Notes under the pieces: generated by a model | What the model was told of the DNA's origin: nothing | What the model saw: only the letters and a program-made list of their open reading frames with translations | The model's database searches: none | Part shown: positions 20,225 to 37,355 of the stretch, piece by piece | How the letters are laid out: the number at the start of each line of letters is the position of its first letter | Position numbering within the stretch: the first letter of the stretch is position 1 | Source of the DNA: an uncultured Ruminococcus sp. | GTDB taxonomy: Bacteria; Bacillota; Clostridia; Oscillospirales; Acutalibacteraceae | Assembly: GCA_902761345.1 (NCBI GenBank) | Contig: CACWKD010000007.1 | Coordinates: 1-40,080, forward strand | Reading direction: 5' to 3' | DNA length: 40,080 nucleotides | Program-made: the position numbers and the translations under genes

Positions 20225-21337
20225 TTACTCCTGCGCCGTATATGATACAGACAATCTGTCGTTAAACAAAGTATTACCGTTTCTCTCGTCAAATTTATCC
20301 GATAAGAATTTCAGTTTGTCGTATGCGTATTCCTTTATCTGTACCGTTGTATATCTGTTCTCGTCATTGATAAAATCTGCGTTTCTGTCGGGGAATACTA
20401 TTTTCACATACTGTTTGTCTGCAAACTCTCTCTGCTTCATCAGATGATAAACACCATAATAATACTTCCACAGCATTTTTCCGTTTTTTACATTGTAACA
20501 CAAAGGAAAAGACTTCTTAAACACGGCAAGTCCCTTTCTGATGTCGCTGTAAGCATAAGACAGAAGTATATCTCCCACATATTCGGCAAGGCTTACAATT
20601 TGCGCATTATCTCTGTACAGCAGACGCCACGCTCTGTCTGCGTAGTTTTCCGCTTCCGTAAAATCACCCTTTGTCAGATAGTAATGCGAAAAGTTTACAT
20701 AAGTAATATGCGGCACCTCCGTACAGTGCATAGCGCCCGTCAAAAGCGGTCTGGCAAGCGAAAGGGCACGTTCTATATCATCGTGATAAAACAACACATA
20801 CTTTATTTTTGTATCAAGCTCACAGGCGCGGCAGTCGCTTAATTCATCTCTCTCCATACGGTTAAGATGAGCATAACTCTGCTCAAAGGTAACTCCGTTT
20901 ACTTCCCCGTCCATTCCCTCTGCGAAAAGAATACCGCATATATTCTTGTAGTACGTTTTCTTGTTGCAGTTGAACCTGTCGCAAAAGCTGCCGTAATTTT
21001 CAAGCAGACTGTCTATCTGCTCCTTTGAGATCTGATAAAACTCATGACAATTTCCCGAGATCCACTTATACACCCACAACAGTTCATGGTACGCTTTATC
21101 CCAATACTCGGGGTGCTTTTCAAACAACGCTGTGTATTCGGGGAAAGCCAGAATCGCTTCGTAAGAATCATCATAAATAACAGATTCCGTAAAATACTCA
21201 TAGAATAAGCGAAGCGCATTCTGTACATCATCTTCTTCGAGCGCAAGATCTATCGCCTTTCTGATACCTTTTGCTTTTTCGGCGCCTCGGGGAAGATCGT
21301 AAAAAAACTTAAATTCATATTCAAGATAGTTTCTCAT
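20225..21337 (-). CDS. TPR-like helical repeat protein paired with the HSP90-like gene
   Basis: This is a 370-residue soluble, helical protein with no catalytic motif that I can see. Helix-turn-helix pairs recur, for example ITYVNFSHYYLTKGDFTEAE followed by NYADRAWRLLYR, which has the spacing and small-residue pattern of tetratricopeptide repeats. ATG at 21337 has AAAGGACGG upstream and starts 14 bases after the stop of the HSP90-like gene. An in-frame ATG at 21373 overlaps that gene and is rejected. Because TPR domains are common HSP90 partners, it may be a co-chaperone or client adaptor. That is inference from context. Confidence 0.65.
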   Translation of the reverse strand: MRNYLEYEFKFFYDLPRGAEKAKGIRKAIDLALEEDDVQNALRLFYEYFTESVIYDDSYEAILAFPEYTALFEKHPEYWDKAYHELLWVYKWISGNCHEFYQISKEQIDSLLENYGSFCDRFNCNKKTYYKNICGILFAEGMDGEVNGVTFEQSYAHLNRMERDELSDCRACELDTKIKYVLFYHDDIERALSLARPLLTGAMHCTEVPHITYVNFSHYYLTKGDFTEAENYADRAWRLLYRDNAQIVSLAEYVGDILLSYAYSDIRKGLAVFKKSFPLCYNVKNGKMLWKYYYGVYHLMKQREFADKQYVKIVFPDRNADFINDENRYTTVQIKEYAYDKLKFLSDKFDERNGNTLFNDRLSVSYTAQE

Positions 21338-21351
21338 TATATCACCGTCCT

Positions 21352-23142
21352 TTAAAATTCCATTAGTTTGCAAAGATTTTCGTTGAGTATCTGCATTTCG
21401 TTATGCAGTAAAGGGAAATGTCCCGACAAAAGCGACTGTACATAGAGTATTTCTATATAACAGGTAAGCTTTGTTTCGTCATTCATAGCAAGCATTTTTC
21501 TGACTATCAGATTATTTGTATTAAGATACAGACAAGCAGACGCCTGGGACGCAAGCTCACTGCGAAATCCCGACAGCATACCCTTAAAAAGATCGTTTGC
21601 GCTCTCCATTGATCGCTGAATACGGCGGCTTTCCTGCGCCTTTTCGTTAATGGTATAAAGCGCAGGTATCTCGTAAGGCTCAAACTCCTTTAGTGACGCG
21701 TTACAGTCATACTTTTTAAGAATACGCTTAGCAAAACGGCACAGCTTTTCAGCCTCTAAATCACCTTCAAACTCCGACTCGTCAAGCATATTATCTATAT
21801 CTGTATCGGTTATTTTGTCTATCGAGGTACTCTCTGAAATTGATGACAGCTTCATCATAATAGAGCCTTCGTATACATAGCCTGCGTTGATAAGAAGATA
21901 ATTTCTCTGAGTATAGAGCGGAGATAACTGCTTAAACTGATTTACATCGGTCGTATAATAAGCATTACCTCCAAAATCGCATATCTCCCTGCCTGTCATC
22001 GTACCCAATGACGTTTCAAAAATAATATATGGCAGGAGTACCTCGTCGAGTGTGTCTGTCGATGAGATAACGGATTTTACAGCAAGATTATGTATGCTTA
22101 CTATCTCACGCAAAAGATCTTTGTTTGTGTCGTTTAGCGTTTCGAGATAATCCGCTATACATTCCGCTATCTCGTCTTGTGCCTGTACAAGAGTTTCGTC
22201 CTCGTAGAAATCCTCTCTTGATGACGTTGGTTTAAGCTTGTTTGTATTTATGATACACTTGATAAAAAACGACCATTCGGGCATAAGCTTATCGCCGTTT
22301 TCAGTCAAAAGCATATTTTTCAGATATATCCTGTGCATATTGTGTACATTTGCGGAAACGGGGTACGGGATTACATAGGCTATTCCCTCAAACAGTCCGC
22401 TTTCCGATTTAAGTGTAAAGCAATCAAGGAAATTCTCTCCAAGAAGAATATTTCCTGCTTTCAAACAAGCCTGCTTGTTATTTTCTGCGTCAAATGTAAA
22501 TCTGCTGTTGAGTTTACGGCTTTTCTCCCCGTCCTTTAAATATATAGGATACTGCAAAAACAACCCATAATAATACACAAGGTTTTCGATAGTGTCGGCT
22601 GTAAAGTATGCGTCTATCTGCTCGTCACGTTCTGCTTTATTGTTCCTGATAAGAATTTCTGTACCAATAGGCATTTCATAGCTGATCTTTTCAATAGTAT
22701 AAGTACCGTCTGCAAATCCGTTCCATTCAAGTACAGTATCGGGAGTTTTATATGAACGTGTACGAACGCATATAGAATCTGTAACCATAAAGCATGACAA
22801 AAGACCTATACCAAATCTGCCGATATAATCTCCGTTTTCTCTGCTGTTTTGTATATCGTACTTTGACGACTGCCCAATCACTGCAAGAAACCTGTGTATC
22901 TCGTCCTCTGTAAGACCTGTTCCGCTGTCACGAAATATTATCTGACTGCCGTTTTCGGCTTCTATTTCTACCTGTGAGTAAATCTTGTCAAACGTGCTGT
23001 CATTTGCAATTCTCGCACTGATTGCGTCAACACAGTTTTGCAAAAGCTCACGCACAAAAACATTGGGCGAGCTGTACAAATGGTTTGACAGAATATCTAT
23101 CATTCCGCCTAAGTTTACTTTGAACTTAAAATTTTCTTCCAT
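21352..23142 (-). CDS. HSP90-family (HtpG-like) ATPase
   Basis: This is a 596-residue divergent HSP90/GHKL ATPase, likely a chaperone. The ATP site shows the N-box ELLQNCVDA (E32, N36), DSGTGLT (D72) and GRFGIG (108-113). The middle domain has a conserved-looking TSSRED (arginine near 309) that corresponds to the catalytic arginine of HSP90. The C-terminal region is short and variable, unlike full HtpG (about 620-640 residues and better conserved). AAGGAG precedes the ATG at 23142. An upstream in-frame ATG at 23199 has no site. It is co-directional and tightly spaced with the TPR-like gene. Confidence 0.85.
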   Translation of the reverse strand: MEENFKFKVNLGGMIDILSNHLYSSPNVFVRELLQNCVDAISARIANDSTFDKIYSQVEIEAENGSQIIFRDSGTGLTEDEIHRFLAVIGQSSKYDIQNSRENGDYIGRFGIGLLSCFMVTDSICVRTRSYKTPDTVLEWNGFADGTYTIEKISYEMPIGTEILIRNNKAERDEQIDAYFTADTIENLVYYYGLFLQYPIYLKDGEKSRKLNSRFTFDAENNKQACLKAGNILLGENFLDCFTLKSESGLFEGIAYVIPYPVSANVHNMHRIYLKNMLLTENGDKLMPEWSFFIKCIINTNKLKPTSSREDFYEDETLVQAQDEIAECIADYLETLNDTNKDLLREIVSIHNLAVKSVISSTDTLDEVLLPYIIFETSLGTMTGREICDFGGNAYYTTDVNQFKQLSPLYTQRNYLLINAGYVYEGSIMMKLSSISESTSIDKITDTDIDNMLDESEFEGDLEAEKLCRFAKRILKKYDCNASLKEFEPYEIPALYTINEKAQESRRIQRSMESANDLFKGMLSGFRSELASQASACLYLNTNNLIVRKMLAMNDETKLTCYIEILYVQSLLSGHFPLLHNEMQILNENLCKLMEF

Positions 23143-23234
23143 GTTATTCTCCTTATCTATAAATGAGCAAAAAAGTAAAAATGCTGTTTCATACGCCATC
23201 TGTCGGAATCAATGAATGATGAAGGTTATCGGTG

Positions 23235-23267
23235 AGTTTTGAACTTTGAACTATAAACTTTGAGCTA
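23235..23267 (-). repeat. intergenic repeat copy (AGCTCAAAGTT type)
   Basis: The minus strand reads AGCTCAAAGTT, then TATAGTTCAAAGTTCAAAAC, sharing two blocks with 13711-13733. It sits in the 192-bp gap between parC and the HSP90-like gene. The rest of that gap (to 23334) is a cytosine/adenine-rich stretch with repeated CCACACT words. Confidence 0.45.
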
Positions 23268-23334
23268 ACAAACAACTCCACTCTCCACACTCCAAAATCC
23301 ACACTTGAAACAGCTCCCCATTCAACCCAAACCG

Positions 23335-25578
23335 TTACTCCGATAATGTAAGTTTTAGCTGCTCTGCTTCCTCGCCCGATGGCATTGCTCCCATTGTCGG
23401 CAGTGTTTTTGAACGATACCTCTTCGGGTCTTTAAATCGTCCGTCCTCGTATTTTTCAAGCTTCATTACAATATGACCCTTTTTAAGCTTCATAGCTGCA
23501 ACACCCTGTGTACTTCTTGTGGTTTTGAGCGGAATTGCCCCCGAATGAAGCAGCAGCATTCTGCCCGATGTTGATGTAAGAAGAACATCGCAGTCCTCTG
23601 TAACAAACAACAGTCCCGCAAGCGGTGATTTATCGCTGTACGCATTTGCAAGCTTTTTTCTGTTTGTCTTTGTTTCATAAACATTCAAAGGAACTTTCGC
23701 AAGCTTGCCGTTCTCAAATGCAAACAGCATAAATCCCTCGTAGTCCTTTGTTACTATCATATCAACGGGCATTTCGTCCTCGTCCATACCAAGCTTTGCG
23801 GCAACATAATCGCCCAATACGCTCGCCTTTGTATCGGCAAAATCATACGCCTTAGTTTTATACACCTGACATTTGTTTGTAAAGAAAAGCAGCTCCGCGG
23901 TGTTCGTAGATTCATAAGAACGATATATACTGTCGCCCTCCTTAAACTTCTGCTCTCCTCCCATTCTAAGCGATAACGGGGTGATCTTTTTGAAGTAACC
24001 CTCTTTTGTAAAATAGAGATTTACAGGGTAGTCGGGGATTTCGGGTGTAATGTCAACGTCCTTTATATCCTGCGGGTCTATAAGAGTTGTAACTCTGTCC
24101 TTGCCGTATTTTTTTGCAACCTCTTTAAGCTCGGCTACTATAATATTCTTAACCTTTGTTTTACTTGCAAGTATGCCCTCTAATTCCTTTATATCCCTTT
24201 CAAGCTCCTCTATCTCTTTTGTGCGTCTTAAAATATACTCTCTGTTAAGGTGACGCAGCTTTATCTCAGCAACATACTCAGCCTGAGTTTCGTCTATTCC
24301 AAAACCTATCATAAGGTTCGGAACAACTTCGCTTTCCTCCTCGGTTTCTCGAACTATTCTTATCGCCTTATCTATATCAAGCAGTATCTGTTCAAGACCT
24401 TTGAGCAAATGCAGCTTACTGCGTTTTTTCTCCAAATCAAACGCTGTCCTTCTGCGTACACACTCTACCCTGAATGCCGTCCACTCTTCAAGCAAAGCAC
24501 GCACTCCCAATACTCTCGGTGTGCCTGCAATAAGTACATTAAAATTACAGGGAAACGAATCCTCCAGCGGCGTCATCTTGTAAAGCTTCTGCATAAGCGT
24601 ATCGGGGTCGGTATTTCTCTTTAAGTCGATAGTTATTTTAAGACCGTCTATACCCGTTTCATCTCGGACGTCCGATATCTCCTTTAGCTTGCCTGTTTTT
24701 GCAAGGTCGATTATCTTCTCTATTATCGCCTCACTCGTTGCAGTCGGCGGAATACTCGTAACATCTATACAATTCGCCTTGCTGTCGTAGGTGTACACCG
24801 CTCTAACTTTGAAGCTTCCTCTGCCTGTTTCATAGATAGACTTTATTGTGGGTACATCGTATACTATCTGTCCTCCTCCGATAAAATCGGGAGCAGGCAA
24901 AGTTGAGATAATATCGTGGTCTTTATCCTTTATCAATGCTATTGTAGTTTCGCATAATTCTCTTAGATTAAAAGAACATATATTGCTCGCCATACCTACG
25001 GCTATACCTGTATTTGCATTTACAAGAACAGACGGAAAAGTCGCAGGCAGCAAAGTCGGCTCTTTTAATGTGTTATCATAGTTATCTACAAAATCCACCG
25101 TATCTTTATCTATATCCTTAAACAACTCGTTACATATAGCGTCAAGCTTTGCCTCTGTATAACGGGACGCAGCCCACGCCATATCACGGCTATAAAACTT
25201 ACCGAAGTTTCCCTTGCTGTCAACGTAGGGGTGCAAAAGCGCCTCGTATCCTCGGCTAAGTCTTACCATAGTATCGTATATCGCCGTATCGCCGTGAGGG
25301 TTAAGCTTCATCGTCTGTCCGACAATGTTTGCGGATTTCGTTCTTGTCGCACCTAAAAGCCCCATTTTATACATCGTAAACAAAAGCTTTCTGTGCGAGG
25401 GCTTAAAGCCGTCTATCTCGGGAATTGCTCTCGACATAATAACGCTCATAGCATAGGGCATATAGTTTTCTTCGATCGTGGTAACTATCTTCTGATCAAC
25501 AACATCGCCCGCACCTCTTATCACACCCTTTATTTTCGGCTGATAGGATTTAGGCTCTGTCTTTTTCTTTCTTGCCAT
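23335..25578 (-). CDS. parC: DNA topoisomerase IV subunit A (ParC-like)
   Basis: This is the DNA-cleaving subunit of a type IIA topoisomerase. The 747-residue product has the catalytic tyrosine Y140 preceded by R139 in AASRYTEAKL. Its quinolone-determining region is LNPHGDTAIYDTMVR, with threonine (T98) at the GyrA Ser83 position and aspartate D102 at the Asp87 position. A coiled-coil gate follows, then a short C-terminal domain. No clear GyrA box (QRRGGKG) is seen, and the length fits ParC rather than GyrA. It starts 17 bp after parE. Gyrase versus topo IV cannot be settled without a phylogeny. Confidence 0.85.
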   Translation of the reverse strand: MARKKKTEPKSYQPKIKGVIRGAGDVVDQKIVTTIEENYMPYAMSVIMSRAIPEIDGFKPSHRKLLFTMYKMGLLGATRTKSANIVGQTMKLNPHGDTAIYDTMVRLSRGYEALLHPYVDSKGNFGKFYSRDMAWAASRYTEAKLDAICNELFKDIDKDTVDFVDNYDNTLKEPTLLPATFPSVLVNANTGIAVGMASNICSFNLRELCETTIALIKDKDHDIISTLPAPDFIGGGQIVYDVPTIKSIYETGRGSFKVRAVYTYDSKANCIDVTSIPPTATSEAIIEKIIDLAKTGKLKEISDVRDETGIDGLKITIDLKRNTDPDTLMQKLYKMTPLEDSFPCNFNVLIAGTPRVLGVRALLEEWTAFRVECVRRRTAFDLEKKRSKLHLLKGLEQILLDIDKAIRIVRETEEESEVVPNLMIGFGIDETQAEYVAEIKLRHLNREYILRRTKEIEELERDIKELEGILASKTKVKNIIVAELKEVAKKYGKDRVTTLIDPQDIKDVDITPEIPDYPVNLYFTKEGYFKKITPLSLRMGGEQKFKEGDSIYRSYESTNTAELLFFTNKCQVYKTKAYDFADTKASVLGDYVAAKLGMDEDEMPVDMIVTKDYEGFMLFAFENGKLAKVPLNVYETKTNRKKLANAYSDKSPLAGLLFVTEDCDVLLTSTSGRMLLLHSGAIPLKTTRSTQGVAAMKLKKGHIVMKLEKYEDGRFKDPKRYRSKTLPTMGAMPSGEEAEQLKLTLSE

Positions 25579-25595
25579 TATTACTCTCTCCCCTC

Positions 25596-27581
25596 TCAGC
25601 TTATATCAAGATTATCTATATAATCGGCGCCGTACTTTACAATATAATCCTTACGTCCCGTAAGATTATCACCCAGAAGTATGTCAAATATTTCTGCTGT
25701 TTTCTCTGCGTCATCGGGCATTATCTTTATTAATCTGCGTGTATCGGGGTTCATTGTTGTTAAGTTCATCATATCGGGTTCGTTTTCACCAAGTCCTTTA
25801 GAACGCTGTATTGTAAACTTTTCCTTCCCTATCTCGCTTATAAACATTTCCTTTTCCTGTTCGGTATAGGCAAAATATATCTGATTTTTTGTTGTAATTT
25901 CATACAAAGGCGATTCTGCAATAAACACCTTTCCCTCACGAATAAGTGTTGGGGTAAGTCTATATATCATAGTGAGCAGGAGCGTTCTTATCTGAAATCC
26001 GTCAACATCTGCATCGGTACAGATAATTACCTTACTCCACCTGAGCATATTCAAATCAAAGAGCGATAGATTTTTATTAGATTTTGCAGTAGTTTCGACT
26101 CCGCAGCCTAAAACCTTTAAAAGGTCTGTTATTATCTCGCTTTTAAAAATCTTGTCGTAATCTGCTTTCAGACAGTTGAGTATTTTTCCTCTTATCGGCA
26201 TTATCGCCTGAAAATCGGGGTTTCTCGCCTGCTTACAAGCTCCCAAAGCTGAATCTCCCTCCACGATAAACAGCTCTCTTTGTGAAGTATCTTTACTTCG
26301 GCAATCAACAAATTTTGCAACACGGCTTGTCATATCCATATTGCTGGAAAGAGTTTTCTTTATATCAAGACGAGCTTTTTCGGCTTTTTCACGGCTTCTC
26401 TTATTTATAAGCACCTGTCCTGCAATTCTGTCCGCTTCCAGTGGATTTTCTATAAAGTATATTTCAAGCTGATGACGCAGCACCTCGACAAGAGCGTCCT
26501 GAATACCCTTATTGTTAATCGCCTTTTTCGTCTGATTTTCGTATGATGTCACGCTCGAAAACGACGATATAACTACAACAAGGCACTCCTCTACATCGTT
26601 AAACTTTATCTTACTTTCGCTTTTGTTATACTTTCCGTTCTGTTTTAAGTATGCGTCTATCTGATAAACAAAAGCATTCTTAACCGCTGCCTCGTGCGCT
26701 CCTCCGTGTTCAAGCCAGCTTGAATTATGATAAAACTCCTGTGCTTTAACCTTATTTGAAAAAGCAAGAGCTATATTCATCTTTGCCTTGTACTCGGGTT
26801 TATCAGCGCGATCTCTTACCATACGCTCAGCCTGCCAAGACTGTACAGATGTTAAAGCGTCCTCGCCCACTATCTCCTTAACGTGGTCTGTTATTCCGTC
26901 GTTATAGATGAACTCTGTTGTATCAAAGCTCTTGCCGTTCTGTATTCTCAGAATAAATTTTATTCCTGCGTTTACTATCGCTTGTCGTCTGATAATATCG
27001 TGAAAATATTCGGGAGGTATATCTATATCGGTGAAAACCTCCAGATCGGGGCGCCAACGTATTTTTGTACCTGTGTCACGCTTTGAATATTTTTCCTTTT
27101 TCAGTCCTCCTACATTTTCGCCCTTTTTAAAGGAAAGAGTATAGCGTGTGTCGTCACGTCTGATGTCAACGCTCATATATTCGGAGGAATACTGTGTAGA
27201 GCAGAGTCCAAGACCGTTTAAGCCTAAAGAATACTCGTAATTTTCGCCCTCGCTGTTATTATACTTTCCTCCTGCATACAATTCGCAGAACACAAGCTCC
27301 CAGTTATATTTTTCCTCATTTTTATTATAATCTACGGGAATACCTCTGCCGTGATCTTCGACCTCGATAGATTTATCCTTGTAGTAAGTAACCGTTATTT
27401 CTCGTCCGTAGCCCTCTCTTGCCTCGTCTATGGAGTTTGAGAGTATCTCAAAGAACGAATGCTCGCAGCCCTCAAGTCCGTCCGAACCGAATATTACGGC
27501 AGGACGCTTTCTTACTCTGTCTGCTCCTTTTAATGAAACGATACTTTCGTTATCGTATTCGGGTGTTTTTTTTCTTGCCAT
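25596..27581 (-). CDS. parE: DNA topoisomerase IV subunit B (ParE-like)
   Basis: This is the ATPase subunit of the type IIA topoisomerase. The 661-residue product has the GHKL ATP site (E45 and N49 in EILSNSIDEA, D76 in EDHGRGIP, glycine loop GLNGLG near 120-125) and the QTK loop (350-352). Its Toprim motifs are EGDSALG (441-447) and DADVDG (523-528). The first Toprim motif departs from the usual EGDSAGG, and DADVDGFQIRTLLLT replaces the usual DADVDGAHIRTLLLT. All acidic metal ligands are kept, so it is probably active. AAAGGA lies before the ATG. It follows a small membrane gene by 59 bp. Confidence 0.87.
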   Translation of the reverse strand: MARKKTPEYDNESIVSLKGADRVRKRPAVIFGSDGLEGCEHSFFEILSNSIDEAREGYGREITVTYYKDKSIEVEDHGRGIPVDYNKNEEKYNWELVFCELYAGGKYNNSEGENYEYSLGLNGLGLCSTQYSSEYMSVDIRRDDTRYTLSFKKGENVGGLKKEKYSKRDTGTKIRWRPDLEVFTDIDIPPEYFHDIIRRQAIVNAGIKFILRIQNGKSFDTTEFIYNDGITDHVKEIVGEDALTSVQSWQAERMVRDRADKPEYKAKMNIALAFSNKVKAQEFYHNSSWLEHGGAHEAAVKNAFVYQIDAYLKQNGKYNKSESKIKFNDVEECLVVVISSFSSVTSYENQTKKAINNKGIQDALVEVLRHQLEIYFIENPLEADRIAGQVLINKRSREKAEKARLDIKKTLSSNMDMTSRVAKFVDCRSKDTSQRELFIVEGDSALGACKQARNPDFQAIMPIRGKILNCLKADYDKIFKSEIITDLLKVLGCGVETTAKSNKNLSLFDLNMLRWSKVIICTDADVDGFQIRTLLLTMIYRLTPTLIREGKVFIAESPLYEITTKNQIYFAYTEQEKEMFISEIGKEKFTIQRSKGLGENEPDMMNLTTMNPDTRRLIKIMPDDAEKTAEIFDILLGDNLTGRKDYIVKYGADYIDNLDIS

Positions 27582-30554: not shown

Positions 30555-30583
30555 ATTTTATAACAAACTTTCGTATATGTCAA
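30555..30583 (-). promoter_or_regulatory. uvrB promoter with overlapping LexA-like box
   Basis: On the minus strand TTGACA (30583-30578) and TAAAAT (30560-30555) are spaced 17 bp. The spacer and -10 edge contain CGAAAGTTTGTTAT (30573-30560), which keeps CGAA and GTT at the positions of the Gram-positive SOS box CGAACNNNNGTTCG but differs at three symmetric positions. SOS control is plausible, not shown. Confidence 0.55.
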
Positions 30584-30584
30584 T

Positions 30585-30619
30585 CAGCCCCAATCCTGTA
30601 TTACTCGGATTTGGGGCTG
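30585..30619 (-). terminator. terminator of the kinase-phosphatase cassette
   Basis: CAGCCCCAATCC (30585-30596) pairs with GGATTTGGGGCTG (30607-30619) with one bulged base. It lies 28 bases after the stop of the large fusion gene, just upstream of the uvrB promoter. The T-run is weak on the minus strand. Confidence 0.65.
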
Positions 30620-30647: not shown

Positions 30648-33600
30648 TTAATTGTTCAGTATGTCCAAAACCTTATTGCAGACATTCGTTATCTCTCTTC
30701 CCGAAATAGTGATAATATTGAAATCTTCACCATGTTCTATAAGCTGCTCGTTCTCCTCGTTGTCTATACAATCCGCTATAATAACTGCCGTCATATTTAT
30801 TCCAAACGTATTAGACAATGCAAATAGCTTTGTATAATAGTCTAAGCTTAATTCTCCCGTTGCCTTGCACTCGATAAATACCGTAGAAAATCCCTTTGTT
30901 ACTATACAATCGAACTCGTTCTTTGAAAAGTTATTTTCCCAGTTTATCTCAAAACTGCTCCTTATATCATCAAAATAACCGCATTTCTTTAGCTTGTGGT
31001 ATACATAAACTTCGAGTATTCTTCCCTCAAGCGTAAGCAGATCCTTTATCTGAGCTGTTGAATATGTAAAGCTGATACTTTTCCTATCGTCACTTACGCT
31101 GTAATTTCTGATATAACCGTTCCTGCTAAGGAAACTCAGTATACCGTATCCTGCCTCATTGATCTCTCGATCTCTGTCATTCTTTACAGGACAGTTCACA
31201 ACTCTTAAATCATCAAAAATCACTTTGATTATATTGTGCTTGGGATTAATATCAATCTTAATAAAGTCGTCATCTCTGAGGAATATCTCGTTATCAAAAA
31301 GCTTTTTGAACTTATCTTCCCACTGATAGCTGCACTCAACAGTAACCAGACAAGACCCTGTGTTAAGAATTTTAACATTGCTGTTCCCGCTTATCATATT
31401 TCGTTGTTTAAGCGCTTCAATTATTCTTGCGGCAGCTCTGCGGCAGGAGTTGGAGAGTCTGTACTTATATATGTTAGGTTTGGATAGTAAAGTATCGTTA
31501 TCCGTTGCTTCGAATTTTACATATGTATCATGATTTGCAGCATAATTTTTAAGAATGCCGCATATGAACTTCCATGCACATTTATTCATATTGCTGCAGG
31601 AATACTTATTCCAAAGCTCTCCGTAGCTTTCGTAAAACTCAGGCTTGTCCCCTGATACATTTGTAGATTTGTGAAGCGCAAATACATCAGATACAGTTAT
31701 AAATGTATCCCTTTTCACATATCTGAATACATCTGCTCCGCTTATTTCATCAAAAATCATCTTTGACGAATCAAAATGGTAGCTTGCTATGCTGCTGTAC
31801 ATTCTTGATATTGTATCCGATGTAGATATAGTACCCGTTGATACAGGCGAGCTGTTTTTCTCCAAATAAAACCATGGTGTTTTCTTCGCCCTGTCATTCA
31901 ACTTCTTTTCAAGGTCGGGTATGAATTCATCTAACGTTTTACCCTTTACAAACCTAACCCTCTCAACCTTACAGTCGCTTTCATCACGGAACTTCTGTAT
32001 CATCTCATCGGAATCAAAATCATCTTTGCCCATTTTTGTTCCAATGATAAACTCGATCTTTGAACGAAACTGCTTTCTGTCCATATACTGTGATATGTAC
32101 TTCAATGTATCTGTTATTTTCTGTATTTCCTTAGTATCCTTACAATATGCCGTATATATTATCCTCTCGGGATTAACTATTGTCGGCACTGCAACATTAG
32201 AAAACAGCTCGGTTCTGTCACCCATTTTTTTACCTGCAATAAACGGTATTGCAAGACACATATCAGCCGAATAAGTAAGTATAAACGGTATTCCGTCTAC
32301 AAGTGCAATGTCATCGTCCTTGTAATTATGGTACTGTCTGCTTAACTGTACGATCTTAAACTGTTTATCCAATGCCTCTATGCTGTCCTTTAGCCATTTT
32401 CTGTCGGGAACGCTTATGTCCTCATCGTTCTTAATAAAATAAAGACAAGACTTAACAAGACCTGCATAACGACTACACTGATCCGTTTCATTGTTCCAGA
32501 TATCTTTCATACAGGTTATGAGTTCATGGAATACGGAGAGAGCTGTTCTGTGTCCGCTGAGTCTTTCTCTGATACCGCTGATAATATGGCTGTTAAACAA
32601 AGTTTCCACTCCAAGCTTGTTAGCCTCCTCCATGTACACACAATGCAGATCAACCGAAACTTTCTCCAGCTCGTCAAGCTTTTCATACTCGGTAGGTTCG
32701 TCTTCGGAAACTTGATAATCTCCGCCGTTATCCCACAGTTTCTTGTTTATCTTTCCGTTTTGGGCTACCCATTTTCCCGTTGAAAGCGCGTCAAACGGAC
32801 TGCTCCTCACAAGACAAACATGCTCTTTTTTCGTCTTTGTTTTACCGTCCGCGCACTCATAAACATCTCGGTTCGTATATCCTGTACAAAGCTTCTCTAC
32901 TACCCACCTGCGATGCTCCATATAAACAAGAGCGTTTCTATCCTCTGCATTTTCGCTTATATACTTTGAATAGTCATTGGCAGCCTTTGAAAGATTATGA
33001 ATATCCATATCTATTCCTATGCTGTAAAGCTTATATTTTGCAGCAATAACAAAAGATACGCAGGAATGGTGATTATAGTCCTTTTTAAAATCGTTGCGGA
33101 CATCGCCGAACTTTATGTTGAGATTTTTATTCCAGATCAGATGTACATTGAGTGCCATTCTCTCAATTTCTGCATACTCGGGTGTTGTCTTTATGTCATC
33201 TGATACATATACGGGAATTAGTCCCTGTAACTCTCTGTCGTGGAAATGACTTCCTTTCCACACAAAGCACGTTTGACACGGAAGCGCAAAAGACTTTACT
33301 ATCGCAAGAGTATCTGCGTCTTTGCCTGCCGCTACAAAAACATAATCGGGCTTTTCGCTGTCATCGGAGAATAGCTCGTTTATATAACTTTGGTTGTCGC
33401 TGATAGTATCTACCGAAAAAGTATGAGTAATGAAGTGTATGCTGCCGTACACCTCATCTCTTGACGTTTCTTCATTAATATCAAAGAATACTTCAAGGTC
33501 CGGTCTGTCTTTCAGATACTTTTCTATCTCTTTTTCTGATTTAGAGATAACGGTTACTTTGATAGTTTTACCGGGGATCTGCATTATTTGCAGAGTTGTA

Positions 33601-34808
33601 TCAAGAAATTGTGTTCCGGCTGTGCTTAATCCTATCAAAAGGATATTTACGGTATTTTTCTTTCGGTCAATATCCTCATAGATAGGATTGGTAAACAAAT
33701 GTCGCTGAATTGCCGCAAGCGATCTTTTCTCTGCCTGTTTCTTTAATACTGAGTTTTCTCCCGTAAGCGTCCACTCGTTATCCACACCTGCTCCCGCAGC
33801 AACTCCGCCCGGCGCTGCAAAATACAAAGCATTCTTTATATCCGCAAGCAGTTCCTCACAGCTTGTATAACGATCCCCTCTTGTACATAAGGTCTTCTGT
33901 AAAATTCCGAGAAGCGTACTCTTCAGCTTTTCGTTTGAATTACGCTGCGAGCATTTTATCAGCTCGGAGGTTTCAAGCAGCGTTCTGAGTTTGTCATAAG
34001 ACTCATAATCATAGCGATAGTCTGTATATTTTAAACCGTCGTTTATAATTATCGAATAAAACAACACTGCGCCTATTGAAAATATATCAGACAGATTACA
34101 GGAATAATCATTTCCTGCCTCGGGTTCAACAAAGCCGTAAGCGCCTACTGCGTAAGGCGGTACGTTGAATACTGAACAAGCGGTATTTACATCAAACATA
34201 GATAATGTCTGAGGAAGTATTTCATCACCCGAAACTTTAAAACCAAAATTATCGGGCTTTATATCTCTGTGCAAAAGGTTTGCCTTATGAAATGCGCAAA
34301 TACATTTCGTTAAGGTTTCAATTGACAGCAGTATGTCATAAAGCTTTTTTTCGGGATCGATAGTCGGGTGCTCGTGTATATCTTTACAAAAATCACTGTA
34401 TATCTTAAGCTGTGGATCGGGCGTCCATATATATGATGTTCCCGTTATATTACAGTCCTCGTCACAGCCGTAATATATTTCAAACGCAGGTACAAATGCA
34501 GCAAGTTCGGGGTTGCTGCGTTCAAAGATCATCATTTTATACGGCTCAAGGTACTCTTTTTGAAGCCTTAAAAACTCCTCTTTTTCCTCTCTGCACCCCT
34601 CGGGAATTACAACCTGTCCGTTCTCATCTCTTGTAAGCGATTTTATAGCTCGTGGGTAAAACTCTTTTAATACGCCCGAACCCGTGTTCATATTATGTGC
34701 GTTATAACACACGGCAGACGCGCCGCTCGGCTCTATTTTGCTGTCGATAATAAACCTGCGTTTAAACTTTTCGCCGTCCGCCATTCCGCATAGCAAAACA
34801 CTATCCAT
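30648..34808 (-). CDS. Kinase-like / Rossmann-RyR-like / PD-(D/E)XK nuclease fusion protein
   Basis: This is a 1386-residue multidomain protein. Residues ~15-330 form a Ser/Thr kinase-like domain, with lysine 48 in GVLKEFYP, HRDIKPDN at 180-187, and DVN at 206-208 where DFG is usual. The glycine loop is only EPSGASAV. Residues ~387-545 begin NILLIGLSTAGTQFL, a Rossmann/TrkA-N-like fold. Residues ~625-675 contain MEHRRWVVEKLCTGY, resembling RyR domains. Residues ~835-975 look like a further Rossmann-type sensor (NPERIIYTAYCKDTKEIQKI). Residues ~1262-1375 form a nuclease: LEGRILEVYVY (E1266), NEFDCIV (D1300), FIECKATG (E1313, K1315), as in Card1/Can2 (DUF1887). ATG at 34808 follows GGAGG. It is third in an operon with a PP2C phosphatase. 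Confidence 0.8.
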   Translation of the reverse strand: MDSVLLCGMADGEKFKRRFIIDSKIEPSGASAVCYNAHNMNTGSGVLKEFYPRAIKSLTRDENGQVVIPEGCREEKEEFLRLQKEYLEPYKMMIFERSNPELAAFVPAFEIYYGCDEDCNITGTSYIWTPDPQLKIYSDFCKDIHEHPTIDPEKKLYDILLSIETLTKCICAFHKANLLHRDIKPDNFGFKVSGDEILPQTLSMFDVNTACSVFNVPPYAVGAYGFVEPEAGNDYSCNLSDIFSIGAVLFYSIIINDGLKYTDYRYDYESYDKLRTLLETSELIKCSQRNSNEKLKSTLLGILQKTLCTRGDRYTSCEELLADIKNALYFAAPGGVAAGAGVDNEWTLTGENSVLKKQAEKRSLAAIQRHLFTNPIYEDIDRKKNTVNILLIGLSTAGTQFLDTTLQIMQIPGKTIKVTVISKSEKEIEKYLKDRPDLEVFFDINEETSRDEVYGSIHFITHTFSVDTISDNQSYINELFSDDSEKPDYVFVAAGKDADTLAIVKSFALPCQTCFVWKGSHFHDRELQGLIPVYVSDDIKTTPEYAEIERMALNVHLIWNKNLNIKFGDVRNDFKKDYNHHSCVSFVIAAKYKLYSIGIDMDIHNLSKAANDYSKYISENAEDRNALVYMEHRRWVVEKLCTGYTNRDVYECADGKTKTKKEHVCLVRSSPFDALSTGKWVAQNGKINKKLWDNGGDYQVSEDEPTEYEKLDELEKVSVDLHCVYMEEANKLGVETLFNSHIISGIRERLSGHRTALSVFHELITCMKDIWNNETDQCSRYAGLVKSCLYFIKNDEDISVPDRKWLKDSIEALDKQFKIVQLSRQYHNYKDDDIALVDGIPFILTYSADMCLAIPFIAGKKMGDRTELFSNVAVPTIVNPERIIYTAYCKDTKEIQKITDTLKYISQYMDRKQFRSKIEFIIGTKMGKDDFDSDEMIQKFRDESDCKVERVRFVKGKTLDEFIPDLEKKLNDRAKKTPWFYLEKNSSPVSTGTISTSDTISRMYSSIASYHFDSSKMIFDEISGADVFRYVKRDTFITVSDVFALHKSTNVSGDKPEFYESYGELWNKYSCSNMNKCAWKFICGILKNYAANHDTYVKFEATDNDTLLSKPNIYKYRLSNSCRRAAARIIEALKQRNMISGNSNVKILNTGSCLVTVECSYQWEDKFKKLFDNEIFLRDDDFIKIDINPKHNIIKVIFDDLRVVNCPVKNDRDREINEAGYGILSFLSRNGYIRNYSVSDDRKSISFTYSTAQIKDLLTLEGRILEVYVYHKLKKCGYFDDIRSSFEINWENNFSKNEFDCIVTKGFSTVFIECKATGELSLDYYTKLFALSNTFGINMTAVIIADCIDNEENEQLIEHGEDFNIITISGREITNVCNKVLDILNN

Positions 34809-34831
34809 ACAGTTTTCCTCCATTTTTTATA

Positions 34832-35533
34832 TCAGCTTTTAAAAGAGCTGCCAACCAGATCCATAGAAATAATACTGCAATCGTCAACTCTTTCTTTGTC
34901 TGTTAAAAGTTTAAACAGACTATTATAATCCTGCTTTATCAAAACCTCTCTTACGGCAGGATCTATTTTGTTCCTGTTATACATCAAATGCCATGCACCG
35001 TCCGAGCAGATCACAACCGAGTTAATGTCATCTGTACTTATAACGCCCGAGTTTGAGTGCATATATCCGTTTAATGTAGTTGTAACGCAACAGCCCTCAC
35101 GACTGTCGGACGGCATTGACAGCACGGTAAAGCTTTCATTGCCCGAAACTATAATAAGACTGTCGCCAAGACTGAAATAGTATATCTCGTTTCTGTTATA
35201 GTCGATCACGGCAAATGCTATCGTACTTGCATACTCGTCAATATCAGCTTTCCTTTTTTCTGCCTCGCATTTCAAAGCAACATTAATATCCGAAAGCAAA
35301 CTTCCTGCGATCTCATAAGAATTGCGGTCAAAAATTGTTTCTCCCGTTGCTTTTAAAAACTCCTTTGTTATATCGCAGGCTATTCTTGCCCCGTCGGCAG
35401 AATATTTGCCCGAGGAAACACCGTCTGCCAAAATAATATAGGACGTGTTATTATTTTTCTCGTATAACACATAGTCCTGATTTTGAGCGTTGTCATAGCT
35501 ATGGTGCTTCCCTGCTTCACTCATGTAGTTCAT
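34832..35533 (-). CDS. PP2C-family Ser/Thr protein phosphatase
   Basis: This is a 233-residue stand-alone PP2C phosphatase. It has the metal-binding pattern: QD near residue 20, LADGVSSG with D37-G38, FSLGDSLIIV, VVICSDGAW and the late DDCSIISMD. It would remove phosphate from Ser/Thr, most likely opposing the kinase domain of the next gene 23 bp downstream. No membrane helix is seen, so it is cytoplasmic. The ATG at 35533 has GGAAGGGG upstream. Earlier in-frame starts overlap the preceding gene and have no ribosome site. Confidence 0.9.
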   Translation of the reverse strand: MNYMSEAGKHHSYDNAQNQDYVLYEKNNNTSYIILADGVSSGKYSADGARIACDITKEFLKATGETIFDRNSYEIAGSLLSDINVALKCEAEKRKADIDEYASTIAFAVIDYNRNEIYYFSLGDSLIIVSGNESFTVLSMPSDSREGCCVTTTLNGYMHSNSGVISTDDINSVVICSDGAWHLMYNRNKIDPAVREVLIKQDYNSLFKLLTDKERVDDCSIISMDLVGSSFKS

Positions 35534-35564
35534 ATAATTTTCCCCTTCCAAATCTAAACACTTT

Positions 35565-37355
35565 TCATATATGGCTCGCCGCATAAGACGAGAATATTAC
35601 AGCTATATCAAATATATTTTTATCGTTTACAGGCTGATAATGCGCCATTTCAAGATATGCGTTCAAACCGCTCATAGGGTTTGTGTAATCGTTATACACA
35701 TCTACCAGACTTTTGTATCGGTTTTCATTTTCGATCTTCGCATTATAGTAATAATAATACGCTGTAATAAGAGCTGTTCTCGTCATGAACTGAGGACTTT
35801 GTATATTCATAGTAGAAACAGGTCTTGATGAAACCTCACGATGTTCCTCGTTTACCGTTTGTTTATTCTCCTGTTCTATAAACACATTACCGAGATAGCT
35901 GTTAATTGCAAAGAGCAGCTTTACAAATTTATCAAGCTTCTCGGGATCTTTTCTGCGCGCGTTCTCAAAAAACTCTCCGTTCATTCCCTTTTTCAATCCC
36001 GAAACATCTGCAAACCATAGTCCGTAATTGCAGTTTTCTCTCTTTACAGACAAATCGAAATGTTCCATATCTCGAATTAGCTTATTATAAAGTCTGAAAG
36101 CAGTATAAGACGATGACTGCGTTTGCATACTGCTTTTTGCACGCTGTTTCTGTTCTCCCTTGCTGTCAACGTAATCCTCCAATTCAAGACTGCAATCGTA
36201 ATTCTCTGCGATATACCTCTCAAAATCATCTTCCGACAGGTCAAACACCTCCTGTGTCATCTTGGAAGTAAAATAACGTGTTGCCATATTCCTTGATACA
36301 TTAAGAGTATTCTTGTTCGTTAAAGATGACAGTCTCTTTATCATTTCCTCTGCGTTCTTTATTTTCATACTCCTTTTCATATCCTTTGACAGATAATATA
36401 CATATACCATTTCGGCAAAGTTCTTATAATTTATTCCCTGTCCCGAGGGGTCTATTTCATATGCCGTAATGTTTCCCGAATATGCGTTTGTTAAATACCT
36501 CATAAGGTTATTGGAATAATAATCCTCGAAAAGGTTTTTCTGTATATCGGTTTCGTAATCAAGTATCTGCTCCATATTTCCGTTTTCACAGTAAAAAGAC
36601 ATATTGTATACTATTGCAAAAAGGTACAGATCTCTCTTTATCGAACCTCCTGCTTTAAACCTTCCGCAGGCAAGATCATCGCAAAGACGCAGTAAACCGT
36701 ATTTTCCCTCAGGCTGTTTCTGTGCTTTTGTTGCCGTTTCAAGCACAGCAAAAATATCGTCATCAATATTGTTGATCACGTCATCATTAGAATTTGCGTC
36801 AGCACCCTTTTTCCCCTCTGCATATTCTACGATATACTTTTGACCGTTATAGATACATACCTTTGACTGCTTCGGCTTGCCGTTCTTTTTTAATACTATA
36901 TTACCGTCATTATCATAAACATCTGCCGTATAAGTAAGATAATTTCCATACTTAATAAACTGCTTTAATATTCTGAGCCTTAACGTACCGTCTTGCCAGT
37001 TGTCGCTTTTATCACACACTCTGTCAACTATTCTGAGCATTGACTGTTCGGGGGTGGGATAATCGTCAAAGTTTGCAAAAAGAGTTTCGAGTATTTTTGT
37101 TTCTATATCATCAAACGAGGGCAGTACAGTTGTATCAACAAGTTCCTCAAAATACTCGTCTTCTCTCATGGAGTCGCAGGGTATCTTCAGACAAGCAAAC
37201 ATTCTCATAAGTTCTGCTCTTATACTCGGCTTTGCAGACGGAGCTGCTTCCTTTAACTGCTCAAGCTTCATCTCAAAATCTTCTCCTGTGAGCATTGAAG
37301 CGAGCATATTCTCACGCTTATCTTTCATCTTTACAGTTAGTCTTTCGTTCACCAT
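35565..37355 (-). CDS. Unrecognised 596-residue protein, first gene of the kinase cassette
   Basis: This is a soluble, mostly helical protein with no family I recognise. The N-terminal part (to ~140) has basic/acidic helices. A short insert near 145-200 reads like two beta strands and a low-complexity asparagine/aspartate loop. The best-conserved-looking stretch (about 220-255) is LLRLCDDLACGRFKAGGSIK followed by RDLYLFAIVYNMSFY. The C-terminal third is rich in tyrosine. No ATPase or nuclease motif was seen. ATG at 37355 follows GAGGTGG. A GTG nine bases upstream overlaps that site. It lies 31 bp before the PP2C gene and is likely its operon partner, possibly a sensor, scaffold or phosphorylation target. 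Confidence 0.75.
   Translation of the reverse strand: MVNERLTVKMKDKRENMLASMLTGEDFEMKLEQLKEAAPSAKPSIRAELMRMFACLKIPCDSMREDEYFEELVDTTVLPSFDDIETKILETLFANFDDYPTPEQSMLRIVDRVCDKSDNWQDGTLRLRILKQFIKYGNYLTYTADVYDNDGNIVLKKNGKPKQSKVCIYNGQKYIVEYAEGKKGADANSNDDVINNIDDDIFAVLETATKAQKQPEGKYGLLRLCDDLACGRFKAGGSIKRDLYLFAIVYNMSFYCENGNMEQILDYETDIQKNLFEDYYSNNLMRYLTNAYSGNITAYEIDPSGQGINYKNFAEMVYVYYLSKDMKRSMKIKNAEEMIKRLSSLTNKNTLNVSRNMATRYFTSKMTQEVFDLSEDDFERYIAENYDCSLELEDYVDSKGEQKQRAKSSMQTQSSSYTAFRLYNKLIRDMEHFDLSVKRENCNYGLWFADVSGLKKGMNGEFFENARRKDPEKLDKFVKLLFAINSYLGNVFIEQENKQTVNEEHREVSSRPVSTMNIQSPQFMTRTALITAYYYYYNAKIENENRYKSLVDVYNDYTNPMSGLNAYLEMAHYQPVNDKNIFDIAVIFSSYAASHI

What the first reader, a model, noticed from the sequence alone, without database searches (positions are those of the whole stretch)
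30648..37355. Three-gene kinase / PP2C / nuclease cassette, candidate undescribed stress or anti-phage system
Seen: three co-directional, tightly spaced genes (gaps 31 and 23 bp) encode a 596-residue unknown, a PP2C phosphatase with its metal residues, and a 1386-residue kinase-Rossmann-RyR-like-nuclease fusion, with their own leader and terminator. Known: RyR and TrkA-N-like domains and DUF1887 nucleases occur in prokaryotic conflict and nucleotide-signalling systems. PP2C/kinase pairs act as reversible switches. Inferred: phosphorylation state gates the nuclease after ligand binding, for abortive defence or stress arrest. I know of no named system with this exact set, but could not search.
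Basis: partly seen in the sequence, partly recalled or inferred. Interest (0 to 1): 0.9.

Follow-up and report, generated by a model that had tools for sequence, protein, structure and literature searches.

The report
Kinase-controlled RyR/CARF-like nuclease cassette
A gut-type bacterium carries a conserved gene set in which one giant protein joins a protein kinase, a domain related to the nucleotide-sensing part of animal calcium-release channels and a CRISPR-type nuclease; it looks like an immune or stress switch, and I found no description of it.

Summary
The three genes are real, open and under purifying selection. Gene C is a kinase, a Rossmann domain, a RyR-like domain, and a C-terminal half with the fold of the nucleases Card1/Can2/VC1899 (CARF-like plus PD-(D/E)xK). 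Kinase-bearing C and gene A form one module: A lies upstream in 31 of 33 testable loci, beside 0 of 9 kinase-less C genes, and both occur in the same 6 of 300 family genomes. PP2C is optional (23 of 36). RyR-like residues are invariant; phosphatase and most kinase residues are kept. The Card1-type ligand loop is lost (0 of 34), and 30 of 39 carrier genomes tested have no Cas10 match above cut-off, so this is hardly a type III CRISPR effector. Unexpectedly, TIR genes lie within 3 kb of 5 of 8 kinase-less and 9 of 35 kinase-bearing loci, in five loci behind a small PF02026 RyR gene. In a 2026 preprint phage RyR proteins bind or cleave cADPR immune signals through residues that C keeps. Best reading: a Thoeris-like ADPR-signal nuclease effector with a fused kinase/A/PP2C input. 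Protein A matches no solved fold. PADLOC families are not enriched nearby, the window has no TIR gene, and function is untested.

The parts
35565..37355 (-). gene A, 596 aa, mostly helical protein of unknown fold; near-constant partner of the kinase-type C
   Evidence: ORF; no Pfam, PADLOC or NCBIfam hit at the limits used; AF2 pLDDT 83, pTM 0.82; no PDB or viral fold match at E<=1e-3; dN/dS 0.075
34832..35533 (-). PP2C-type protein phosphatase, 233 aa; D20, D37-G38, D178-G179, D217 present
   Evidence: PF13672 E 1.4e-27; D20, D37, G38, G179 and D217 in 20 of 20 rows, D178 in 19 of 20
30648..34823 (-). gene C, 1391 aa (or 1386 aa from the ATG at 34808, which has GGAGG before it): kinase - Rossmann - RyR-like - helical - CARF-like - linker - PD-(D/E)xK nuclease
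33729..34823 (-). protein kinase domain (C residues 1-365; K53, D187, K189, N192, D211)
   Evidence: Pkinase 1.9e-6, sub-cut-off; D187 in 32 of 32, K53 30, K189 28, N192 31, D211 31 of 32 rows; all five in 24 of 32
33183..33728 (-). Rossmann domain (C 366-547) with a GxGxxG-type loop in most of the family
   Evidence: AF2 model; G398 in 33 of 34, G at 400 in 27 of 34 (window S) and at 403 in 21 of 34; PF03435-type Rossmann matches weak, best 0.013
32613..33182 (-). RyR-like domain (C 548-737); E636-H637-x-R639-W640 and H668 invariant
   Evidence: 34 of 34, and L024, L026, L030 too; profile finds ryanodine receptors in PDB, best E 0.002; hhalign to small PF02026 RyR genes 85% probability, E 5.7e-6
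31734..32273 (-). CARF-like domain (about C 851-1030); TGG-type ligand loop absent
   Evidence: Card1/Can2/VC1899 fold matches; hhalign 99.8%, E 3.9e-30 to free-standing Card1-like proteins; [ND]x[TS]G[GA] 0 of 34 in this region against 5 of 5
30651..31118 (-). PD-(D/E)xK nuclease domain (C 1236-1391; D1305, E1318, K1320)
   Evidence: PF09002; E1271, E1303, D1305, E1318 and K1320 all intact in 28 of 34 rows, 29 of 37 with L024, L026, L030
30585..30619 (-). hairpin after C and before uvrB; not a canonical intrinsic terminator on this strand
   Evidence: fold -22.9 kcal/mol for the 91-nt stretch, z -3.8; absent from the terminator scan

Best explanation
The cassette is a nucleotide-signal-responsive nuclease effector with a built-in phosphorylation switch. 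Shown by sequence and predicted fold: C joins a kinase, a Rossmann domain, a RyR-like domain and a Card1/Can2-type CARF-like/PD-(D/E)xK half; the kinase and protein A appear and disappear together; PP2C is an optional third part; TIR genes lie close to C in 14 of 43 relatives, most often where the kinase is missing (5 of 8). Inferred: the RyR-like domain (possibly with the Rossmann domain) binds an ADP-ribose-type signal through H637, W640 and H668; protein A is the sensor or regulator of the kinase; kinase action on C or A sets the threshold or arms the effector; PP2C resets it; the armed CARF-like/nuclease half cleaves nucleic acid and causes dormancy or abortive defence. In relatives with a TIR gene the TIR protein would make the signal, and the small RyR protein, where present, would bind or destroy it. 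In the window's variant the kinase/A input replaces or adds to the TIR input.
For: Fold: C 366-1391 model pLDDT 87.7; all nine PDB matches at E<=1e-3 are VC1899, Can2, Cdn1 or Card1, target TM 0.39-0.72; sequence-profile match E 3.9e-30. Module: gene A upstream of 31 of 33 kinase-type C genes with enough upstream sequence, and belonging to 0 of 9 kinase-less ones; in the family survey A and kinase-type C in the same 6 of 300 genomes; A/PP2C/kinase/C distance matrices correlate at r 0.91-0.93, 0 of 2000 permutations as high; kinase state changes 6 times on the tree, at least 4 forced by starred branches, e.g. kinase-less L064 among kinase-type rows. Residues. Signal: RyR matches; RyDEP H75/W78/H100/D117 contact cADPR-type ligand (PMC13232231, abstract and passages); C has H, W and H in 34 of 34 and D in 30 or E in 4 of 34 at the fourth place (fourth place matched by eye). 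TIR_2 is the commonest Pfam family among immediate neighbours, 22 of 134 scanned; a TIR profile finds TIR within 3 kb of 14 of 43 loci and none in seven control stretches of 124 kb.
Against: The window has no TIR gene, and its genome has TIR matches only on other contigs and no PF02026 match. PADLOC families are not enriched around the cassette (41 and 52 families in 69 and 65 neighbours against 112 in 65 control proteins). TIR loci are partly close relatives (L059, L066, L070), L071's match is doubtful, and counted by stretch 14 of 43 against 0 of 7 is only suggestive. The small RyR gene is present in 2 of 9 kinase-less rows only. Eight of 37 C rows have lost nuclease residues and 8 of 32 kinase rows change one of five residues. 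The window has E, not D, at the place of RyDEP's catalytic D117, and the RyR likeness is weak stretch by stretch. Nothing shows that the kinase acts on C, A or PP2C. The sign test for kinase/A coupling on independent pairs has only 4 pairs (p 0.125).
Confidence: 0.4

Rival explanations
1. A chromosomal stress or dormancy regulator: the kinase/PP2C pair reads an internal cue through A and the nuclease slows growth by RNA or DNA cleavage; phage defence is not its job.
For: No enrichment of PADLOC families around it; no relative in one scan of IMG/VR viral contigs; no TIR in the window.
Against: Patchy distribution (cassette DNA matched in 3 of 22 genomes of the genus; one genome besides the window's own among 398 of the phylum with a full-length match), Synergistota rows nested among Bacillota and TIR/RyR linkage fit conflict systems better.
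Confidence: 0.25
2. The effector is the kinase, not the nuclease: phosphorylation of host or phage proteins by C stops growth, and the C-terminal half is a sensor that sometimes loses its nuclease activity.
For: All five kinase-type rows with a broken nuclease site in the 34-row alignment (L040, L054, L068, L074, first L077 copy) keep K53, D187, K189, N192 and D211; in L076 C ends after the RyR-like domain.
Against: Nuclease site intact in 29 of 37 rows; kinase-less forms keep the nuclease; 8 of 32 kinase rows change one of the five residues.
Confidence: 0.2
3. A toxin-antitoxin-like set in which PP2C is the antitoxin that keeps C off.
For: Tight gene order, PP2C metal residues nearly invariant.
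Against: No PP2C found with 13 of 36 rows (some at contig edges); of the 8 such rows in the nuclease alignment 7 keep the nuclease site (L041, L043, L046, L048, L050, L056, L065; not L068).
Confidence: 0.08
4. A type III CRISPR accessory nuclease (Card1/Can2 member) activated by cA4, with extra domains.
For: Same fold and nuclease site. Nine of 39 carrier genomes tested have a Cas10 match above cut-off.
Against: TGG-type loop in 0 of 34; Csm1 above cut-off in 6 of 39 and Cmr2 in 3 of 39 carrier genomes, neither in the window's genome; some sub-cut-off matches, e.g. in G320 and G326, could be divergent Cas10. The best fold match, VC1899, is itself reported not to be activated by cA4 (PMC7969007 passages).
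Confidence: 0.05

Closest known systems
Card1/Can2/Cdn1 and VC1899 CARF-PD-(D/E)xK nucleases
   Same: C-terminal half of C has the same two-domain fold and, in most rows, the nuclease residues.
   Different: About 850 extra N-terminal residues (kinase, Rossmann, RyR-like, helical), no TGG-type ligand loop (0 of 34), no Cas10 above cut-off in 30 of 39 carrier genomes tested.
Thoeris (TIR signal plus effector) and phage RyDEP RyR proteins (PMC13232231)
   Same: TIR genes near C in 14 of 43 relatives, RyR-like domain with the ligand-contacting H-x-x-W...H pattern, small PF02026 RyR gene between C and TIR in five loci.
   Different: Effector is a RyR/CARF-like nuclease; 26 of 35 kinase-bearing loci, and the window, have no TIR gene within 3 kb; no signal has been shown.
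Kinase + PP2C + vWA cassettes of actinobacterial GAP1-N2 conflict systems (PMC7159879, passage)
   Same: Kinase gene linked to a PP2C gene in a predicted conflict system.
   Different: Third partner is a helical protein of unknown fold, not matched to vWA; the kinase is fused to a nuclease.
PD-T4-6 kinase models (PADLOC)
   Same: Kinase domain matches weakly (3.2e-7).
   Different: The match covers the kinase part alone; partners and the rest of C differ.

Membership tests
Card1/Can2 (type III CRISPR nuclease) | CARF plus PD-(D/E)xK fold | tested here: met
Card1/Can2 (type III CRISPR nuclease) | TGG-type CARF ligand loop (feature recalled, and seen in the free-standing relatives here) | tested here: not met
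   [ND]x[TS]G[GA]: 0 of 34 in the CARF-like region against 5 of 5 free-standing relatives; with strict GG 0 of 34 against 4 of 5
Card1/Can2 (type III CRISPR nuclease) | genome encodes a Cas10 | tested here: not met
   Csm1 above cut-off in 6 and Cmr2 in 3 of 39 carrier genomes; none in G000, which is 89% complete. Carriers L057, L065, L069, L071, L073, L076 were not tested
Card1/Can2 (type III CRISPR nuclease) | nuclease activated by cA4 | not testable with these tools
   bench test needed
Thoeris | TIR gene in the same locus | tested here: not met
   window: none in 40 kb. Relatives: within 3 kb in 5 of 8 kinase-less and 9 of 35 kinase-bearing loci
Thoeris | effector that binds a cADPR-type signal | not testable with these tools
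   only residue conservation
RyR domain (PF02026) | sequence match to RyR | tested here: inconclusive
   no PF02026 among Pfam families listed for nine C proteins, but profile search of the PDB ranks ryanodine receptors first, E 0.002, and hhalign 85%
RyR domain (PF02026) | ligand residues H, W, H and D of RyDEP | tested here: met
   H637, W640, H668 in 34 of 34; fourth place D in 30, E in 4 of 34, the window having E (fourth place matched by eye)
Kinase/PP2C phospho-switch | catalytic residues on both enzymes | tested here: met
   window intact on both; 24 of 32 kinase rows and 19 of 20 PP2C rows fully intact at the places checked
Known anti-phage system in PADLOC | full-length model match for A, PP2C and C | tested here: not met
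   only domain-level matches for C and weak ones for PP2C, none for A

The most novel reading that the evidence does not exclude
A new immune system class in which the input of an ADP-ribose-signalled (Thoeris-like) nuclease has been rewired from a TIR enzyme to a protein-kinase/helical-sensor/phosphatase module fused onto the effector; the small RyR gene encoded behind C in 15 of 45 loci is the host's own off-switch that degrades or binds the signal, a counterpart of CRISPR ring nucleases.
Probability: 0.25. Interest if true: 0.92.

Novelty: new variant of a known kind. Interest (0 to 1): 0.75.

Why it matters
If right, it links three things usually studied apart: protein phosphorylation, CARF-type nucleases outside CRISPR, and RyR domains as readers of ADP-ribose immune signals. 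It gives a bacterial RyR-domain effector on which the question whether RyR domains sense cADPR can be tested, and a natural experiment (kinase-less and kinase-bearing forms of one effector) for how immune inputs are swapped. Protein A is a conserved family without a match among solved folds.

Tried and rejected
Type III CRISPR membership: rejected. Enrichment of PADLOC families: tested with a control of 65 proteins from seven other stretches and not found (41 and 52 families against 112 in the control, which held restriction and helicase genes; family lists were capped at 25 shown). Virus origin: one scan of viral contigs found no relative. Protein A by fold: no PDB match (best E 2.1) and no viral match (best E 0.049). 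An empty insertion site: not definable, because in the genus uvrB and the PMT gene lie on different contigs where both are matched; in G196 gene A adjoins the PMT gene, while uvrB and PP2C-C sit on contigs that end there. Phylum sample: of 7 of 398 genomes with a match, G000 and G591 match over the whole profile; the other five match only the nuclease end, in frames of 390-417 aa. An earlier comparison of the TGG loop used a stricter pattern for C than for the relatives; repeated with one pattern, same result.

Rows dropped: 3 of 137 neighbours were left out of the scans for size (one each in L026, L045, L049; the L045 one has a TIR match); 11 of 76 control proteins were left out likewise. Neighbours were ORFs of at least 150 aa from 42 loci, those with cassette-profile hits skipped. 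The 34-row C alignment leaves out L024, L026, L030 and incomplete C genes.

Literature: ten paper searches listed no paper that describes this gene set; most subscription papers are not in the library. The 2015 survey of nucleotide-centric systems that I recalled is not held, so a mention there cannot be excluded. Seen: PMC13232231 abstract, outline and passages; PMC7969007, PMC9704534, PMC11229360, PMC7159879, PMC13092281, PMC7016017 passages only; all others as listings.

Recalled, from no call: DUF1887 as the older name of PF09002, the CARF topology used to place the ligand loop, ring nucleases as a comparison.
Full report
WHAT IS THERE. The window (contig C7 of an unnamed 2.09-Mb, 89%-complete genome) holds, on the minus strand between uvrB and a PMT-type gene, three tight genes: A (596 aa), PP2C (233 aa) and C (1391 aa, or 1386 aa from the ATG preceded by GGAGG). 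PP2C matches PF13672 at 1.4e-27. C matches Pkinase at 163-326 below cut-off and PF09002 (Card1-like endonuclease) at 1265-1338 at cut-off; A matches nothing in Pfam, PADLOC or NCBIfam at the limits used. The hairpin after C is strong but has no T-run on C's strand.

FAMILY. A protein search of 300 genomes of the family found a match in 17, the window's own among them; several are only kinase or only nuclease matches. A scan of the 84,980-species collection with a six-row alignment gave 40 loci, L038-L077, some of them the same contigs as. Organisms named are mostly gut and rumen Bacillota, plus two Synergistota and one planctomycete MAG. I tabulated 45 C genes: the window, L024, L026, L030 and L038-L077, with L077 holding two. 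Thirty-six have the kinase. Gene A lies upstream of 30 of these 36 by HMM; L068 has a tblastn match too (E 1e-36), where my ORF caller had chosen the other strand. L038, L044 and L057 run off the contig (641, 862 and 3 bases held upstream); L043 and L073 lack it. That makes 31 of 33. PP2C is found with 23 of 36. None of the 9 kinase-less C genes has its own A or PP2C; the second copy in L077 lies 5 kb from the first copy's A, and L055 has only 1.5 kb of upstream sequence. In the 300-genome survey an A profile hit 6 genomes (G000, G196, G026, G225, G289, G292), the same six in which one search shows a kinase-type C.

EVOLUTION. Distance matrices of A, PP2C, kinase and the rest of C correlate at 0.91-0.93 (18-27 shared loci; 0 of 2000 permutations as high); shared species history may contribute. 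On the tree of 37 rows the two Synergistota rows lie inside a nine-row set with 99% SH-aLRT whose other rows are Bacillota. The kinase state changes 6 times, at least 4 forced by starred branches; the shuffle test does not show clustering of the label (58 of 500 as low). L064 (Anaeromassilibacillus), kinase-less, lies in that nine-row set and has no trace of A, PP2C or kinase in the stretch before it. The independent-pair sign test is too small to be significant (4 pairs, p 0.125; L068 was scored there as lacking A). Window against the congener G196 (C and PP2C from L038, A from L101): dN/dS 0.075 (A), 0.101 (PP2C, 196 codons), 0.081 (C, first 867 codons). In the genus, cassette DNA is matched in 3 of 22 genomes (G000, G196, G315).

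ANATOMY OF C. The model of residues 366-1391 (34-row alignment) has pLDDT 87.7 and pTM 0.85. All nine PDB matches with E up to 1e-3 are Card1, Can2, Cdn1 or VC1899 (best 1xmx: E 4.9e-9, TM 0.72 on the target; lowest target TM 0.39). hhalign to five free-standing ~400-aa Card1-like proteins gives 99.8% and E 3.9e-30, template columns 45-412 of 435. So the C-terminal half is a CARF-like plus nuclease unit. The [ND]x[TS]G[GA] loop that all five free-standing relatives keep is absent from the CARF-like region in 34 of 34 C rows. Nuclease residues E1271, E1303, D1305, E1318 and K1320 are all intact in 28 of 34; L040, L054, L068, L074 and both L077 copies deviate. Of three rows outside that set L030 is intact, L024 and L026 are not: 29 of 37. 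Kinase residues K53, D187, K189, N192, D211 are all intact in 24 of 32 rows, D187 in 32.

RYR AND TIR. The RyR-like domain has E-H-x-R-W and a distal H in 34 of 34 rows and in the three further rows. Its profile, run against 177,635 PDB sequences, finds ryanodine receptors at the top (23 hits to E 1, 22 named ryanodine receptor, best whole-sequence E 0.002, single stretches weak). A search of 150 family genomes for PF02026 found a match in 12; small stand-alone RyR genes in G106 and G026 lie directly behind C. Reading the loci showed such a gene within 60 nt of the end of C in 15 of the 45 rows (13 of 36 kinase-type, 2 of 9 kinase-less). This small protein is a canonical RyR domain (best PDB E 1.7e-84). 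The window and its genome have none. A 2026 preprint (PMC13232231; abstract and passages read) reports that phage PF02026 proteins bind or cleave 2'/3'cADPR through H75, W78, H100 and D117. The C domain has H637, W640 and H668 in the same order and the same H-x-x-W spacing; the fourth place, matched by eye, is D in 30 and E in 4 of 34, the window having E. In the 15 small genes after C the H100 place is T, while H-x-x-W and Y-D-R are kept.

TIR_2 is the commonest Pfam family among the two neighbours on each side of C: 5 of 69 and 17 of 65 proteins scanned (134 of 137 selected). The control of 65 proteins shows no TIR family among the 25 families listed of 100, and a local TIR profile found none in the seven control stretches (123,749 bp) or in the window. 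Within 3 kb, TIR lies by 5 of 8 kinase-less and 9 of 35 kinase-bearing loci (217,484 bp of flank; window and second L077 copy not counted; L071's match is doubtful). Eleven genomes searched for TIR_2 had 52 matches in about 26 Mb, some of them beside C, so a chance expectation for the flanks is below one; the loci are not all independent. The order C - small RyR - TIR is seen in L059, L061, L062, L064 and L073. The window's genome has three TIR matches, on contigs C29 and C79.

PROTEIN A. Mostly helical model, pLDDT 83, pTM 0.82; no PDB match (best E 2.1) or viral match (best E 0.049) at E<=1e-3.

MECHANISM. Shown by sequence: catalytic residues of kinase, PP2C and nuclease in the window and most relatives; close A-kinase coupling; optional PP2C. 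Inferred: A senses or restrains; the kinase arms C; PP2C resets; an ADPR-type ligand is read by the RyR-like domain; the nuclease acts. PP2C is unlikely to be the essential restraint, because of 8 PP2C-less kinase-type rows in the alignment 7 keep the full nuclease site. The kinase may itself be an output: the five kinase-type rows of the alignment with a broken nuclease keep all five kinase residues.

AGAINST. No PADLOC enrichment around the cassette compared with a control, no TIR in the window, weak RyR scores stretch by stretch, and no functional data. Many loci are MAG contigs, so absences at contig ends are uncertain and were set aside where stated.

VERDICT. The finding is real and richer than first thought in structure, though its anti-phage role is still inference. 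I file it as a new variant: a CARF-like/RyR nuclease effector, probably of the ADPR-signal kind, rewired to a phosphorylation module, with one protein family of no known fold.

Noticed in passing
L059 9974-14858; L061 8918-15867; L064 9983-15032; L062 8930-15132; L073 6464-9471: Gene order C - small PF02026 RyR gene - TIR gene; looks like effector, signal remover or binder, and signal maker in one operon.
   Followed up: partly
L087 48-1776; L091 1492-3250; L089 1495-3186: Kinase-less, nuclease-less proteins of 452-491 aa (Rossmann and RyR-like matches in L087 and L091, RyR-like alone in L089) next to the same small RyR gene: the Rossmann-RyR unit seems to be a module of its own.
   Followed up: no
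L032 6633-11941; L033 6015-9806: Proteins of about 1270 aa with a C-like kinase; in L032 it is fused to NB-ARC and TPR repeats and preceded by a 476-aa protein with weak similarity to part of gene A (1.4e-6). L033 was not scanned with Pfam.
   Followed up: partly
L051 1418-6903: Kinase-less C preceded, with overlapping ends, by a 921-aa protein with TPR and a weak DUF4062 match: a third kind of possible input partner.
   Followed up: partly
L024 555-5960: Upstream of a kinase-type cassette: a 421-aa Card1-like protein, a 604-aa protein with a Rossmann match and a weak RyR match near its end, and a 715-aa protein without Pfam match.
   Followed up: partly
L058 8894-13086; L073 4162-7930; L057 3-3809: C split near the border between the RyR-like and CARF-like parts into two ORFs; a natural split or a broken gene.
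   Followed up: no
L076 2315-11792: C ends after the RyR-like domain (874 aa) and is followed by a ChW-repeat protein: a form without the nuclease half; a TIR protein lies directly before gene A.
   Followed up: no
window 20225-27581: gyrA/gyrB-like pair (below the GyrA and GyrB cut-offs) followed by an HSP90-family gene (PRK14083, above cut-off); the gyrB-like gene and uvrB stay near each other in many congeners.
   Followed up: no
window 30555-30619: Strong hairpin between C and uvrB without a T-run on the coding strand; a promoter-like TTGACA-17-TAAAAT site (11 of 12) starts right behind it and overlaps the mechanical TTG start of the uvrB ORF.
   Followed up: partly
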